This document shows, one piece after another, positions 4,320 through 9,693 of a stretch of 64,000 nt of DNA. The stretch's first letter is position 1, and every line of letters starts with the position of its first letter. The DNA comes from Aurantiochytrium sp. KH105 (Eukaryota; Sar; Bigyra; Thraustochytrida; Thraustochytriidae), in assembly GCA_003116975.1 (NCBI GenBank), contig BGKB01000038.1, forward strand, positions 1 to 64,000. The letters run 5' to 3'. Under the pieces are notes generated by a model. It saw only the letters and a list, made by a program, of their open reading frames with translations. It was not told the origin of the DNA and did no database searches. The position numbers and the translations under genes were made by a program.

Positions 4320-4746
4320 GGCCACGTATGATTTGCCACTGATTTTGATTCTTTGATCCCCTTCTCTTTTTCTGATGTTCTTTCTTCATGCCGCGCAAAG
4401 ACGGGAAACAGGTGAATCTGTGCTCTGTCTGCCGCGTACAAGCGAGAGGATGCTGCGTACAACAGCAAGCCTTTCTCTTGCTTTCGTCCCCCTCAATGTT
4501 CTCCTCCTGTTCATCAGCATGCCTATAATGTATTATTCGCCGCCCGCGCCATCGCGGTGTGTTCTCAACCTAACCGTGAGCGATTACCCCCCCAAAAAAC
4601 AACACTTGATTGCTTCTTCACCCAGCTTTACAGGGAAAATTTCCCAAACCGGATTCACTTCACAGTGCGCACGCAGTCAAAGACGGGCCGGCCGGCCAGC
4701 CAGACAGCGAGCTAGCTAGCCAGCGACGCCTTGGACGCTCGCGAGA
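4320..4746. other. Intergenic region, transporter to SNF2-LRR gene
   Basis: No gene is seen. The stretch holds the presumed 3' flank of the transporter and the 5' flank of the helicase gene. A short GCCGGCCGGCC and GAGCTAGCTAGCC block lies just before the helicase start. Confidence 0.5.
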
Positions 4747-7700
4747 ATGTCTCGGGCCGCAGCTCCGCCTGCGAGTAATAAGCGCGCCAAGCTTGCGCTG
4801 GACCTTGAGTTGAGCTCAGATGAAGACGACCACTTCTCTGGCGACGATGACCATACCTCGCGCGCGGCTCTGCCGAAGCAGACAATACAACCACCAAAGG
4901 TCGCGAACGCAAGTACGGCCGCGAACAAGCCTCGCAAAGGCGGTGCTGTAAAGACACGAGCAAGTCGGGCTCGCGCCCCTGCCAAAGGACAACCAAAAGC
5001 CAGAAGAAATCCCCCCCGAACGCGTTCTCGCGCCGTCGCTGCCGAAGACATTGAGGAAGATGATAGTCTTCTTGACGATGGTGACGAAGAGGAAGAAGAA
5101 AATGACGACGACGACAACGATCCCACGCTCAAAGGTTTTATTGTCTTTACCTCTGACGAAGAAGAAGAGGAAGACGATGATGAGGAAGTCGTTCTGGAAA
5201 GCGGCGATGATATCGATATGTCGGACGACGAAGGCATGAACGAGGAGAAAAAGAATAAAAGGACGAAAAGGGGAAAAAGCACGACGCCTCCGCGGCGCAA
5301 ACTCAAACGCGCTCGGCACAATAAAGGCAAACGAATCAAGGAATCAACTGCCAAGCTTGCCGCATTTGATGCCTTGCAAGACGAAGAAGACCGGAAGGAA
5401 GCAGCTGCGCGTGAAAAGATGCGCGAAGTCCTGTCGAAAATGGAGGACAATCGTGCCACGAGACTTTTTGATCTTTGCCAGATTCCCCCCACTCTCAATG
5501 CTTCGCTCCATCCCCACCAACACCAAGCTTTGAGCTGGCTCTACACGCAGGAATTGAAGCATCAATGCGGTATGCTCTGCGACGACCAGGGCCTCGGAAA
5601 AACAGTCGAAATGATTGCCCTCATTCTGAAAAATACCCCCGACAAGTGGAAAGCCAAGAGAGAGAAGCGCATTGAAGAGAACAAACGCAAGTTTTCACAG
5701 GGCAAAATCGCCGACCGCGATCTACCCTTTCCCGAAGGCTGCTCCAAGACGACACTTTGCGTGCTGCCCATTTCTCTCATCAAGCAGTGGAAAACCGAAA
5801 TTGAGCGCTTCAGCAGTGGGCTTCTTCGCGTCGGCGTCTACGACACCAATGCGGACCGCGACGAGCTCAGCAGGACCTTTGACGAGTACGACGTTATTCT
5901 TACAACGTATTCCATCATGCGTATTGAGGGCGAGAAACCGGACGAGAAGAAACGCAAGAACGAAGAAGACGCCTCGCAAGATCGGCGTCGAGCATTCGTT
6001 CGGCGCCAGGTTCTCGCAGAACGTGAGCATGCGTTCAAGGAGCGTCACACCAATCAATCAGTCTTCACAAGGCTCGGCCCCCTCTTTCGCCACTACTGGT
6101 ACAGAGTTGTTCTTGACGAGAGTCACATCATCAAAACCTCGACCACATCGACGTACAGAGCAGCATGCAGACTCTTATCGCTTCACCGCTGGTGTGTCAC
6201 AGGCACTCCAATTCACAACTCGCTCGACGAGCTCTACAGTCAGCTTTCCTTTCTCGTTCACGTACATATGGCCTCTTCGAAAGCGGAATGGAAGAAGCTG
6301 ATCACTAAACCGATCACTGAGGTGGTTGACATGAATGCCAAGGGCAACACATCAGTCAAAGATTCGCTCAAGAAAGATATCGAAGTTGCCTGGCAGCTGC
6401 TTGCTCGTTGCATCTCTGACTTTGTGATTCGCAGGACCAAGCACACTCCCAATGCTGACAACACCCTGTCCCTGGTGCCTCTTCCATACCGTGACACCTT
6501 TATCCGCCACATCCCTCTCGGCCAACTCGAGCGGAGGAACTACGACCGTCTCTACGCGTGTTCGCGTGACGCCTTTCAGCGTATCGCAGGAGAGACCATG
6601 GACGTCATCATGAAGAATATGTTCGTCTGGCTCATTCGCTTGCGCCAGTTTTGCAACCACCCGCTACTTATTGCGCATGCTCTCGGAGCCGACGACCTCA
6701 TGACGACCTTGTTGCGGGATGACGAGGATTCTGGCTCCGATGGTGATGACGACGACGACGAAAACAACGAGGATGACAACTTCTTTGGCCAGAATGCTGC
6801 CAAGGGCGACGGCATGACTGGCCCTGGCGCTCTCAATGCAGAAATCAAGATCCCCCAGAACTTTAGTGCCGCGAATTCTGAGCGTGTCGAAGCCTTAGTG
6901 ACCGAATGGTCGACAGACGCCAACCTGAGTGGCGCAGACTTGGTTAATCTTCGAAAGTCAGCCATCATCACCGTCAAGCAAGAGATTCGAAAAGCACGCA
7001 AGCTAGCTCGCTCCCAGGCACGCGCTGCGTATGAAAAGCGCCGAATGGAAGATAATGAGCTCTTGACACTTGACGATGCAGAAGACGCTCCAACTACACA
7101 CCTGCGGAGTCCTGCTCTCGAACGATTTTACGAATCGCTTCAGCAGCAGCCCAACGAGACAGCATTTCAAATGGCAAGGAGACGCGCGACATTTTGGCCT
7201 AGCAGCAAGCTTGCTGCCATAATCGAGGACCTTCTCGCGTTGCGCCGGCAAAATCCGAGCCTTAAGGCCTTGGTTTTCTCACAGTTCACTAAATACCTCG
7301 ATCTGATTGAGCATGCCATCATCAGATACGGCTTCAAGGTCGTCCGCCTCGATGGCACGATGAGTCAAGCGGAGCGCGAGGTCTCCCTCGAACGCTTTCG
7401 GGACGACCCTTCTGTCAACATTTTTCTTATTAGCTTGCGCGCAGGTGGGCTCGGACTCAATCTTGTGGCTGGCTCCGACGTGCTCATCGCAGATCCTTGG
7501 TGGAACGAGAGCCTCGAGGCTCAGGCGATTGACCGTGTGCACCGTATCGGCCAACTCAAGCCTGTACGCGTTATTCGCTACGTTACCAACCACTCGATCG
7601 AGGAACAAATGCTCAGGATGCAGGAGCGTAAACGCGCTCTCAGCGCCGGGGCCTTCTCCGAAAAGTTCCAGGATGCCAAGACGTTGACCCTCCAAGATCT

Positions 7701-9693
7701 GCAAAACATTTTCGAAGACCACACGACAAGCGCCGGTATCCTCGAAACCACAGAGGACGGCACGCACAAAACATCTCTGCAGATGGTGTACGAGAGTCTC
7801 GAGAAGCAGCTTGAAGAGGTCGAACATGGGGTGCGCAACGCAGTCGGGGAGTGTATCGGCCCGCACCCGAATCGAACTCCTCCCACGCTTGTCTCCCAGA
7901 GTGCCTCGGCCTTCTTTGCGCAGAGTTGCCCGGGTGCCATTGGCACGCTGCGGCGCATTCGCGACTGTGGCAACGTCATCGACGACGCCCTGAGCGATGG
8001 TCTTGATTTTATTGGTGACCACGCTAGTGACAATGGCGCTGGTGACGCTGCTGCGCGCCTTCGCGCCGCGACAGCGGCTTTGCCGTGTCTCAGGTCACTC
8101 AAGAATCGCGGGACACTTTCGACCTGCATGCTATCGCTCGCGAATCATCTCGACTGCAACGAGAGCTTTGCGCAGAGTCAAGTACTTGCGAAGGTGCAGG
8201 GTTTCATGTTGAATGGAACCCGACCTGCATCGCTGCGCTACAGTGCTATAAACACACTTCGAGACCCGTCGCTGGGAAATCTGCGGTCCTTACATCTGGA
8301 ATGTTGCCAGCCTTTGACGCCGGATCTTCTTCGGGAAGCTGCACGGCTGAGTGGCCATTCGCTGCGCGAGCTGCGCCTCATCAATTGCGGGCATGTGCTT
8401 GATGACGACACCGTGGCTACCGTTCTCGATATTTGCGGCGAGCTCCGCGCTGTGGAGTTCACTTGTGCGTACAAACTGCTACGGCTCGACCGTGTATTCG
8501 CGCAAGATGGTCTGCAAGAGATCTCAATGAGGGACTGTCACGAGGCAAGAATCTCGCACGATGGCCTCGTTCGTCTGAACTGGTCCGCACTTTCCACCTT
8601 GGAGATCCTTGATCTCTCCCACTGCAAGAACCTGCTTGGACAGCGACGCGACGCACGGGCCGAGATTCTGGGCGTTGACCACGAAAAGGATACTGTAAGC
8701 TACGTGATTGAAAACACGCCACGTCTTCGCGTGCTTCGATGCGCTGGTGCCGACCAGCACACGTTCAACCAAGCAATGTTGAAGGCGATCTCGACACGCT
8801 TGTTTGCTCTTAAAGAGCTCGATGTAAGCGAGTGTGTCAATCTTTTCGCCTCACGCTCCTTTCTGACCGAGCTCGTAGAGACTGCTCCTGACTTGCGCAC
8901 AGTGCGAATGTCTCGATGCCCTATTCCCAACATCCAAGACCGTGAACAGAGTCTACTTCGCGAAAAGTTCCACATGGAGACCGTCGCGGCCAAAAAGATT
9001 TCTATGGAGCATGTAGATGAAGAGACCATCAATAGAACCATCATGGAGATGTCGGCGAAGACTGACGTGCCGGGCGAAAGCGGCGTCAACGTGCAAAAGG
9101 AGCGACTCATGGACATGAACGACAATTTTCTGTCGGTCCCGCCGAGCGCACAAAAGAGACCTCCTCCCCCGCGGAGCGGGCCCGTGGCTACCATGTCTGG
9201 CGCGACACAGCAGGGCGATGCTACTGTGGCAAGCAGCGGGCAAGGTGCCGAGGATGCCGAAGAGGCGAAAACGGCACAGGCGACGACGGAAGATCCTCTG
9301 CGCGAGGGCGCTAGACACCTTTTGTACTCCTTGAGCAAGCTTTCGAAATTGGAGGTCTTAGAACTCGGGCTCATGGATGTCATTGACGACTTTTTGGTGC
9401 GGAGCGTTGCGAAGAGCTGCCCGAATCTGCGTGTGGTCAACTTTTCTGGCTGCTCCGGGATCTCTGACAATGGTGTGCGCGCGCTTGCGTTCCTGCACAA
9501 GCTCGAAGAATTGGATCTCTCGTGGTGCCCTGCCATATCCCACGCCACGGTCATTGGTCTCTTGCAACACTTACCGCGACTGCGTTCCCTTCGTCTCTAC
9601 GGCTGCCACGACCTCGACGTTCTCAAGATATCAGAGGCCATTCGAACCCGCGCAATTAGCTGCAACCCCGTGCTCTCCGTCTGGTTCGGGTAG
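4747..9693 (+). CDS. SNF2-family DNA translocase (Rad5/Rad16-like) fused to C-terminal leucine-rich repeats
   Basis: This 1648-residue protein starts with a basic and acidic disordered region (1-230). The SNF2 ATPase core follows: Walker A as DQGLGKT at 280-286, DESH at 457-460, and the helicase C lobe from about 837 with DRVHRIGQ at 929-936. The TGTPIHNSLDELYSQLSFL block is typical of the Rad5/Rad16/HLTF group. These enzymes translocate on DNA with ATP and act in nucleotide excision or post-replication repair or in chromatin remodelling. The group normally carries a C3HC4 RING between the lobes. Here that interval is acidic and lysine-rich and contains no cysteine, so the RING is absent. Residues about 1179-1395 and 1536-1640 are AMN1-like, cysteine-containing leucine-rich repeats, separated by a low-complexity linker. 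Yeast Rad16 partners with the LRR protein Rad7, so this may be a fused equivalent (inference). Nuclear location is expected. Confidence 0.88.
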   Translation: MSRAAAPPASNKRAKLALDLELSSDEDDHFSGDDDHTSRAALPKQTIQPPKVANASTAANKPRKGGAVKTRASRARAPAKGQPKARRNPPRTRSRAVAAEDIEEDDSLLDDGDEEEEENDDDDNDPTLKGFIVFTSDEEEEEDDDEEVVLESGDDIDMSDDEGMNEEKKNKRTKRGKSTTPPRRKLKRARHNKGKRIKESTAKLAAFDALQDEEDRKEAAAREKMREVLSKMEDNRATRLFDLCQIPPTLNASLHPHQHQALSWLYTQELKHQCGMLCDDQGLGKTVEMIALILKNTPDKWKAKREKRIEENKRKFSQGKIADRDLPFPEGCSKTTLCVLPISLIKQWKTEIERFSSGLLRVGVYDTNADRDELSRTFDEYDVILTTYSIMRIEGEKPDEKKRKNEEDASQDRRRAFVRRQVLAEREHAFKERHTNQSVFTRLGPLFRHYWYRVVLDESHIIKTSTTSTYRAACRLLSLHRWCVTGTPIHNSLDELYSQLSFLVHVHMASSKAEWKKLITKPITEVVDMNAKGNTSVKDSLKKDIEVAWQLLARCISDFVIRRTKHTPNADNTLSLVPLPYRDTFIRHIPLGQLERRNYDRLYACSRDAFQRIAGETMDVIMKNMFVWLIRLRQFCNHPLLIAHALGADDLMTTLLRDDEDSGSDGDDDDDENNEDDNFFGQNAAKGDGMTGPGALNAEIKIPQNFSAANSERVEALVTEWSTDANLSGADLVNLRKSAIITVKQEIRKARKLARSQARAAYEKRRMEDNELLTLDDAEDAPTTHLRSPALERFYESLQQQPNETAFQMARRRATFWPSSKLAAIIEDLLALRRQNPSLKALVFSQFTKYLDLIEHAIIRYGFKVVRLDGTMSQAEREVSLERFRDDPSVNIFLISLRAGGLGLNLVAGSDVLIADPWWNESLEAQAIDRVHRIGQLKPVRVIRYVTNHSIEEQMLRMQERKRALSAGAFSEKFQDAKTLTLQDLQNIFEDHTTSAGILETTEDGTHKTSLQMVYESLEKQLEEVEHGVRNAVGECIGPHPNRTPPTLVSQSASAFFAQSCPGAIGTLRRIRDCGNVIDDALSDGLDFIGDHASDNGAGDAAARLRAATAALPCLRSLKNRGTLSTCMLSLANHLDCNESFAQSQVLAKVQGFMLNGTRPASLRYSAINTLRDPSLGNLRSLHLECCQPLTPDLLREAARLSGHSLRELRLINCGHVLDDDTVATVLDICGELRAVEFTCAYKLLRLDRVFAQDGLQEISMRDCHEARISHDGLVRLNWSALSTLEILDLSHCKNLLGQRRDARAEILGVDHEKDTVSYVIENTPRLRVLRCAGADQHTFNQAMLKAISTRLFALKELDVSECVNLFASRSFLTELVETAPDLRTVRMSRCPIPNIQDREQSLLREKFHMETVAAKKISMEHVDEETINRTIMEMSAKTDVPGESGVNVQKERLMDMNDNFLSVPPSAQKRPPPPRSGPVATMSGATQQGDATVASSGQGAEDAEEAKTAQATTEDPLREGARHLLYSLSKLSKLEVLELGLMDVIDDFLVRSVAKSCPNLRVVNFSGCSGISDNGVRALAFLHKLEELDLSWCPAISHATVIGLLQHLPRLRSLRLYGCHDLDVLKISEAIRTRAISCNPVLSVWFG

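What the first reader, a model, noticed from the sequence alone, without database searches (positions are those of the whole stretch)
4747..9693. SNF2 translocase fused to AMN1-like leucine-rich repeats, without the RING expected for Rad5/Rad16 relatives
The sequence shows a complete SNF2 core (DQGLGKT, DESH, DRVHRIGQ) and about 460 C-terminal residues of cysteine-containing LRRs in one uninterrupted frame. In yeast, Rad16 (SNF2 with RING) acts together with Rad7 (LRR protein) in global-genome nucleotide excision repair. A single polypeptide with both parts would be a fused form of that pair, and here the interval between the helicase lobes contains no cysteine at all, so the ubiquitin-ligase part appears lost. 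The Walker A region also reads DDQGLGKT where most relatives have DEMGLGKT or DDMGLGKT. Rad7/Rad16 identity of the halves is inference.
Basis: partly seen in the sequence, partly recalled or inferred. Interest (0 to 1): 0.7.

Follow-up and report, generated by a model that had tools for sequence, protein, structure and literature searches.

The report
DNA translocase with leucine-rich repeat tail
A protist gene joins a DNA-pulling motor of the Rad5/Rad16 repair group to a protein-binding leucine-rich repeat tail and lacks the group's usual ubiquitin-ligase finger; the join is conserved on two genomic copies, but it is probably an extra relative of Rad16, because the same genome has a separate Rad16-like gene.

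Summary
One uninterrupted 1648-residue frame (4747-9693, +) carries both SNF2 lobes and about twelve cysteine-type leucine-rich repeats (LRRs). No RING was found: no cysteine at residues 637-1035 and no CxxC anywhere. A second genomic copy (contig C63) has the same architecture; differences are mostly synonymous (Ka/Ks 0.13 overall, 0.04-0.05 in the SNF2 lobes, 0.09 in the LRR region). An LTxxDLxxLF motif that ends three RING-bearing relatives of this genome sits at residue 980, so the LRRs look appended to a complete motor.

The Rad7-Rad16 fusion reading is only partly supported. The motor falls in the Rad5/16-like group (100/100), but the genome also has RING-bearing Rad16-like (L031), HLTF/Rad5-like (L019) and SHPRH (L022) genes, and the window's place inside the group is unresolved. 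The LRRs score higher with FBXL2, FBXL17 and Skp2 than with Rad7, a test of limited power. No clear separate Rad7 turned up with yeast Rad7 as probe, so a Rad7-like role is not excluded. RING absence has precedents (Arabidopsis RAD16b, Tetrahymena Lodestar). Best reading: a RING-less Rad5/16-group translocase with an LRR partner-binding module, a new combination of known parts.

The parts
4747..9693 (+). complete coding frame, 1648 aa
   Evidence: second copy on contig C63 also open, 1655 aa, same main Pfam domains
4747..5466 (+). charged, probably disordered N-terminal region (residues 1-240)
   Evidence: 25% D/E, 20% K/R, no Cys; all 9 indel columns between copies fall in residues 142-170
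5515..6663 (+). SNF2 ATPase lobe 1 (residues 257-639), Walker A DDQGLGKT at 5581-5604, DESH at 6115-6126
   Evidence: Pfam PF00176; motif positions
6679..7191 (+). acidic cysteine-free linker (residues 645-815) between the lobes, where RING-bearing relatives carry the RING
   Evidence: in L019 the RING (824-870) lies between the lobes
7222..7551 (+). helicase C-terminal lobe (residues 826-935), DRVHRIGQ
   Evidence: Pfam PF00271
7684..7713 (+). LTLQDLQNIF (residues 980-989), the motif with which L019, L031 and L022 end
7744..8241 (+). junction region between motor and LRRs (residues 1000-1165), no recognised domain
   Evidence: no Pfam match; 8 synonymous and 5 non-synonymous differences, no indel, between copies over residues 1001-1165
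8242..8943 (+). LRR block 1 (residues 1166-1399), about 8 cysteine-type repeats by eye
   Evidence: Ka/Ks 0.07; not confidently folded in the single-sequence model
8944..9321 (+). low-complexity insert inside the LRR region (residues 1400-1525)
   Evidence: Ka/Ks 0.28
9322..9690 (+). LRR block 2 (residues 1526-1648), 4 repeats to the C-terminus
   Evidence: Pfam LRR_6; PDB matches to FBXL2, FBXL17, Skp2, Rad7; pLDDT mostly 67-85 with strand-helix alternation in a single-sequence AlphaFold2 model; 6 synonymous and 0 non-synonymous differences between copies

Best explanation
A Rad5/16-group SNF2 double-stranded-DNA translocase that lacks a RING and carries a C-terminal cysteine-type LRR solenoid in the same chain. 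The motor would hydrolyse ATP and move along DNA, clearing or remodelling bound proteins; the LRR solenoid would bind a partner (a chromatin or repair protein, or a ubiquitin-ligase scaffold) and so decide where the motor acts. It is an extra paralogue beside the genome's own RING-bearing Rad16-like, HLTF/Rad5-like and SHPRH genes. Shown: domain content, absence of RING, group membership, conservation of the fused frame on two genomic copies. Inferred: translocation, partner binding, any role in repair.
For: SNF2 part matches solved Rad5 at 209.6 bits, next Swr1 155.3. Tree of 21 rows: window, its second copy, L019, L022, L031 and Rad5 form one side of a branch, 100/100; in the 27-row tree the group of 10 rows is set against 17 at 100/99. 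Both copies are open; Ka/Ks 0.04 lobe 1, 0.05 lobe 2, 0.09 LRR region. LTxxDLxxLF occurs in 5 of 28 proteins examined: at the very end of L019, L031 and L022, and at residues 980 and 987 of the window protein and its copy, where about 660 residues follow it. LRR half: PDB matches, repeat statistics. Separate RING genes L019, L022, L027, L031.
Against: No transcript, biochemistry or structure of the whole protein. The model of residues 1031-1648 is poor outside block 2 (mean pLDDT 45.9). Position inside the Rad5/16 group is not resolved: uniting the window with L031 is not rejected (p-AU 0.235), nor with L022 (0.235) or L019 (0.071). The motif LTxxDLxxLF is missing from the fourth RING gene, L027, and from the long-branch rows L028 and L035. 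Walker A carries an unusual Q, so ATPase activity is not certain, though lobe 1 is strongly constrained.
Confidence: 0.6

Rival explanations
1. A fused Rad7-Rad16 pair: a duplicated Rad16 lost its RING and became joined to Rad7, giving one chain that recognises and clears chromatin at UV lesions in global-genome excision repair.
For: Rad16 and Rad7 form a complex and their genes are conserved neighbours in Pezizomycotina (PMC2871058, passages); AtRAD16b is a RING-less Rad16 (PMC10454142, passages); the second lobe matches a recalled Rad16 at 38% over 231 residues including the C-terminal LTxxDLxxLF; the tree does not reject window plus L031 (p-AU 0.235); no clear separate Rad7 was found with yeast Rad7 as probe; Rad4/XPC family matches exist in the genome.
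Against: A separate RING-bearing Rad16-like gene exists (L031); the window core is about equally close to L019 (266 summed bits) and L031 (265). LRRs do not score best with Rad7; in the own-genome search with Rad7 the window's two copies rank 9th and 10th of 32 listed matches. The Rad16-type cysteine pairs inside lobe 1 (recalled feature) are absent (no CxxC).
Confidence: 0.2
2. A Lodestar/TTF2-type member (Rad5/16-like without RING and HIRAN) that acquired LRRs, acting in mitotic chromosome separation or transcript release.
For: A Tetrahymena Rad5/16-like protein was assigned to Lodestar because it lacks RING and HIRAN (PMC9786623, passages); both are absent here.
Against: Absence of two domains is a weak criterion; no Lodestar or TTF2 sequence could be put in the tree. 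The DPWWN...DRVHRIGQ stretch looks closer to Rad16/Rad5 than to TTF2 as I recall it.
Confidence: 0.17
3. Gene-model artefact: two neighbouring genes read as one frame, or an assembly error.
For: No RNA data in these tools.
Against: The frame has no stop; the second copy on contig C63 has the same join, no indel after residue 170, and mostly synonymous differences in both halves.
Confidence: 0.03

Closest known systems
Rad16 (yeast, Arabidopsis RAD16/RAD16b)
   Same: Rad5/16-group SNF2 motor; RAD16b also lacks RING (PMC10454142, passages)
   Different: No RING, no CxxC, LRR tail in the same chain; a better Rad16 match (L031) is in the same genome
Rad5/HLTF
   Same: Best-scoring solved structure to the motor is Rad5
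   Different: No HIRAN, no RING; L019 is the RING-bearing HLTF/Rad5-like gene here
Lodestar/TTF2 subfamily
   Same: Rad5/16-like without RING and HIRAN, as in the Tetrahymena assignment (PMC9786623, passages)
   Different: LRR tail; sequence relationship not tested
Rad7
   Same: LRR protein that partners Rad16; one 61-residue stretch aligns at 39%
   Different: FBXL2, FBXL17 and Skp2 score higher; no convincing match to the Rad7 pre-LRR region
F-box LRR proteins (FBXL2, FBXL17, Skp2)
   Same: Cysteine-type LRRs, best matches
   Different: No F-box listed up to E = 1; joined to an SNF2 motor

Membership tests
SNF2 superfamily | two helicase lobes with SNF2 motifs | tested here: met
   PF00176 and PF00271 over cut-off
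Rad5/16-like group | phylogenetic placement of the motor | tested here: met
   100/100 against 15 other rows, 100/99 in the larger tree; named references few (Rad5, Swr1, recalled Rad16)
Rad16 | RING between the lobes | tested here: not met
   no Cys 637-1035, no CxxC, no RING model; but RAD16b of Arabidopsis lacks it too
Rad16 | orthology (closest gene to Rad16 in this genome) | tested here: not met
   L031 is closer: 499 vs 272 summed bits with a recalled, unverified Rad16, and pairs with it; AU test without recalled Rad16 does not reject window plus L031
Rad5/HLTF | HIRAN domain and RING | tested here: not met
   neither in Pfam scan to E = 1
Lodestar/TTF2 | no RING and no HIRAN | tested here: met
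   criterion from PMC9786623 (passages)
Lodestar/TTF2 | sequence placement with Lodestar | not testable with these tools
   no Lodestar sequence at hand
Rad7 | LRRs closer to Rad7 than to F-box LRR proteins | tested here: inconclusive
   30.7 bits vs 66.7 for FBXL2, but canonical LRR proteins outscore Rad7 for other queries too
Rad7 | elongin-binding (BC-box) N-terminal part | tested here: inconclusive
   only consensus match (recalled consensus) is inside an LRR at 1181
F-box LRR (FBXL) | F-box | tested here: not met
   no F-box match to E = 1

The most novel reading that the evidence does not exclude
The fusion is this lineage's substitute for Rad7: a RING-less Rad16 paralogue that carries its own Rad7-type LRR adaptor, works beside the RING-bearing Rad16-like protein L031, and merges lesion-site clearing and partner recognition in one chain.
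Probability: 0.17. Interest if true: 0.6.

Novelty: new variant of a known kind. Interest (0 to 1): 0.38.

Why it matters
An SNF2 motor and an LRR module in one chain suggests the two cooperate physically, as Rad16 and Rad7 do as separate proteins. If the LRRs prove Rad7-like, the Rad7-Rad16 link would have been made covalent in a lineage far from fungi and plants, giving a single-chain version for structural work. If not, it is an example of a repair-type translocase with a new targeting module and no ligase finger.

Tried and rejected
Rejected or undecided: (1) Red-alga origin, my first guess from the intron-poor frames: no phycobilisome and no light-harvesting family match in the genome. 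A heterotrophic, intron-poor protist of thraustochytrid type is my inference; no call names the organism. (2) L045 (contig C21, fourth-ranked match to Rad7 and apparent second copy of the top match on C68, which was not read) as the missing Rad7: it scores 112.8 bits with FBXL2 against 39.7 with Rad7 and has F-box matches below the curated cut-offs (20.1 and 17.0 bits); the own-genome F-box search did not list it among its 6 matches. I read it as an F-box LRR protein, with that weakness. (3) L046 (contig C150), whose match to Rad7 began furthest upstream: 29.6 bits in the 299 residues read, no clear Rad7 features; undecided. (4) Rad7 pre-LRR region as a query: two matches, both at E 0.715. (5) Viral contigs: 4 stretches matched a pattern, none was confirmed as a relative of the motor. 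Phage records: 279 match the query, all under 60% identity, none covering 80% of it. NCBIfam: only helicase models far below their cut-offs. (6) Three LRR loci read were of no use: two (L039, L041) were read on the wrong strand. (7) Papers on such a fusion: searches returned 0 papers; some searches gave listings (one search showed 20 of 27) in which no title or abstract start named an SNF2-LRR fusion. Only passages of three papers were read.

Not completed: second structure prediction, fold search, Cullin count (not completed).

Full report
1. The observation. The frame 4747-9693 (+) encodes 1648 residues without interruption; an in-frame stop lies at 4717. Pfam finds SNF2-rel_dom at 257-639, Helicase_C at 826-935 and LRR_6 at 1558-1581; no RING, HIRAN or F-box model is among the 9 families listed up to E = 1. 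There is no cysteine from 637 to 1035 and no CxxC pair anywhere, so an ordinary RING between the lobes is excluded. The repeat core LxxLxLxxC occurs 9 times after residue 1030 and 0 times before; 0 of 2000 shuffles of the C-terminal part reached 9, while a looser pattern gave 3, reached by 37 of 2000. By eye there are about twelve repeats in two blocks, 1166-1399 and 1526-1648, around a low-complexity insert.

2. Is the join real? The window's own assembly has 76.0 Mb in 367 contigs, and SNF2 matches come mostly as pairs of near-equal score on different contigs. The window gene has a second copy on contig C63 with the same open frame of 1655 aa and the same main Pfam domains. Codon comparison (88.5 synonymous, 39.5 non-synonymous differences) gives Ks 0.082 and Ka 0.011; Ka/Ks is 0.33 in residues 1-240, 0.04 in lobe 1, 0.17 in the linker, 0.05 in lobe 2, 0.19 over residues 1001-1165, 0.07 in LRR block 1, 0.28 in the insert, and block 2 has 6 synonymous and 0 non-synonymous differences. 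All 9 indel columns lie at residues 142-170. Both halves are therefore constrained and in one frame, on small counts per part; transcript evidence was not available. A single-sequence AlphaFold2 model of residues 1031-1648 is poor overall (mean pLDDT 45.9), but block 2 is mostly at 67-85 with alternating strand and helix.

3. The motor. Against solved structures it matches Rad5 at 209.6 bits, next Swr1 at 155.3. I fetched 27 loci from the genome, one per apparent gene among 56 matches, and Pfam-scanned 15 of these 27; L034 is XPB. L019 (HLTF/Rad5-like), L022 (SHPRH), L027 and L031 carry RING models. In a 27-row tree (23 own loci, the window, Rad5, Swr1, recalled Rad16; L030, L032, L033, L034 left out) ten rows including the window form the Rad5/16-like side against 17 at 100/99, and L031 pairs with recalled Rad16 at 98/94; four rows have long branches there. 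Without recalled Rad16 and with nine own loci left out (L025, L027-L030, L032-L035; 21 rows) the group has 100/100, but inside it placements are open: window with L031 p-AU 0.235, with L022 0.235, with L019 0.071. Recalled Rad16 matches L031 at 499 summed bits, L019 at 304, the window at 272; the window core itself is about equally close to L019 (266) and L031 (265). The recalled Rad16 is a lead, not a verified reference.

4. Architecture clue. LTxxDLxxLF occurs in 5 of 28 proteins examined (27 loci and the window): it starts at 1105 of 1117 in L019, 1568 of 1579 in L031 and 1737 of 1747 in L022, and at 980 and 987 in the window protein and its copy; L027 lacks it. The window protein thus looks like a complete Rad5/16-type motor with about 660 residues added. 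The linker in the RING position is acidic and cysteine-free. Walker A reads CDDQGLGKT in both copies; of 26 other extracted proteins 25 have a GxGKT, 21 with M before it and none with Q.

5. The LRR half. Best solved matches are FBXL2 (66.7 bits), FBXL17 (62.1), Skp2 (38.5) and Rad7 (30.7). This ranking has limited power: an apparent F-box LRR protein of the same genome gives FBXL2 112.8 and Rad7 39.7, and Rad7 itself finds FBXL17 and FBXL2 next after itself. Yeast Rad7, whose typed residues 165-565 print identical to 5zb2_A, has 32 listed matches in the genome, best 30.7 bits; the window's copies rank 9th and 10th. The Rad7 pre-LRR part finds only two matches at E 0.715. So the LRRs are of the general cysteine type, not demonstrably Rad7, and no separate Rad7 was identified; yeast Rad7 may be too divergent a probe, and the search scores only the best candidates.

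6. Comparison with what is known. Rad16 and Rad7 are partners and conserved neighbours in Pezizomycotina (PMC2871058, passages). Arabidopsis RAD16 binds RAD7, and RAD16b lacks the RING (PMC10454142, passages). A Tetrahymena Rad5/16-like protein without RING and HIRAN was assigned to Lodestar (PMC9786623, passages). RING absence is therefore not unusual; the LRR tail on the motor is the unusual part. Three searches for a paper on such a fusion returned none, in an open-access library only and with narrow term sets.

7. Verdict. A conserved fusion of a RING-less Rad5/16-group translocase with a cysteine-type LRR module, most likely an extra paralogue using the LRRs to bind a partner. The single-chain Rad7-Rad16 reading is possible but not favoured.

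Noticed in passing
L031:3084-7823 (+): The genome's Rad16-like gene carries a PARP-type zinc finger at its N-terminus and two RING-like stretches.
   Followed up: partly
L029:1269-4757 (-): SNF2 gene with an N-terminal PARP-type zinc finger and a C-terminal HNH nuclease domain.
   Followed up: no
G000:C198:19522-19728 and C155:20809-21012: HIRAN domain in a ~1290-residue frame on contigs not listed among the SNF2 matches: HIRAN apparently separate from the Rad5/HLTF-like gene.
   Followed up: no
window:25583-26884 (+): Choloylglycine-hydrolase family protein (CBAH, 1.4e-36) in a eukaryotic genome.
   Followed up: no
G000:C38:278420-278692: A Rad4/XPC family match on the same contig as the window, besides another pair on C26 and C1.
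   Followed up: no
window:63231-63554: 168-base unit repeated about twice, 93% matches, near the window's end.
   Followed up: no
whole genome G000: SNF2 matches come mostly as pairs of near-equal score on different contigs, with Ks about 0.08 for the window gene: probably an unmerged heterozygous or hybrid assembly.
   Followed up: partly
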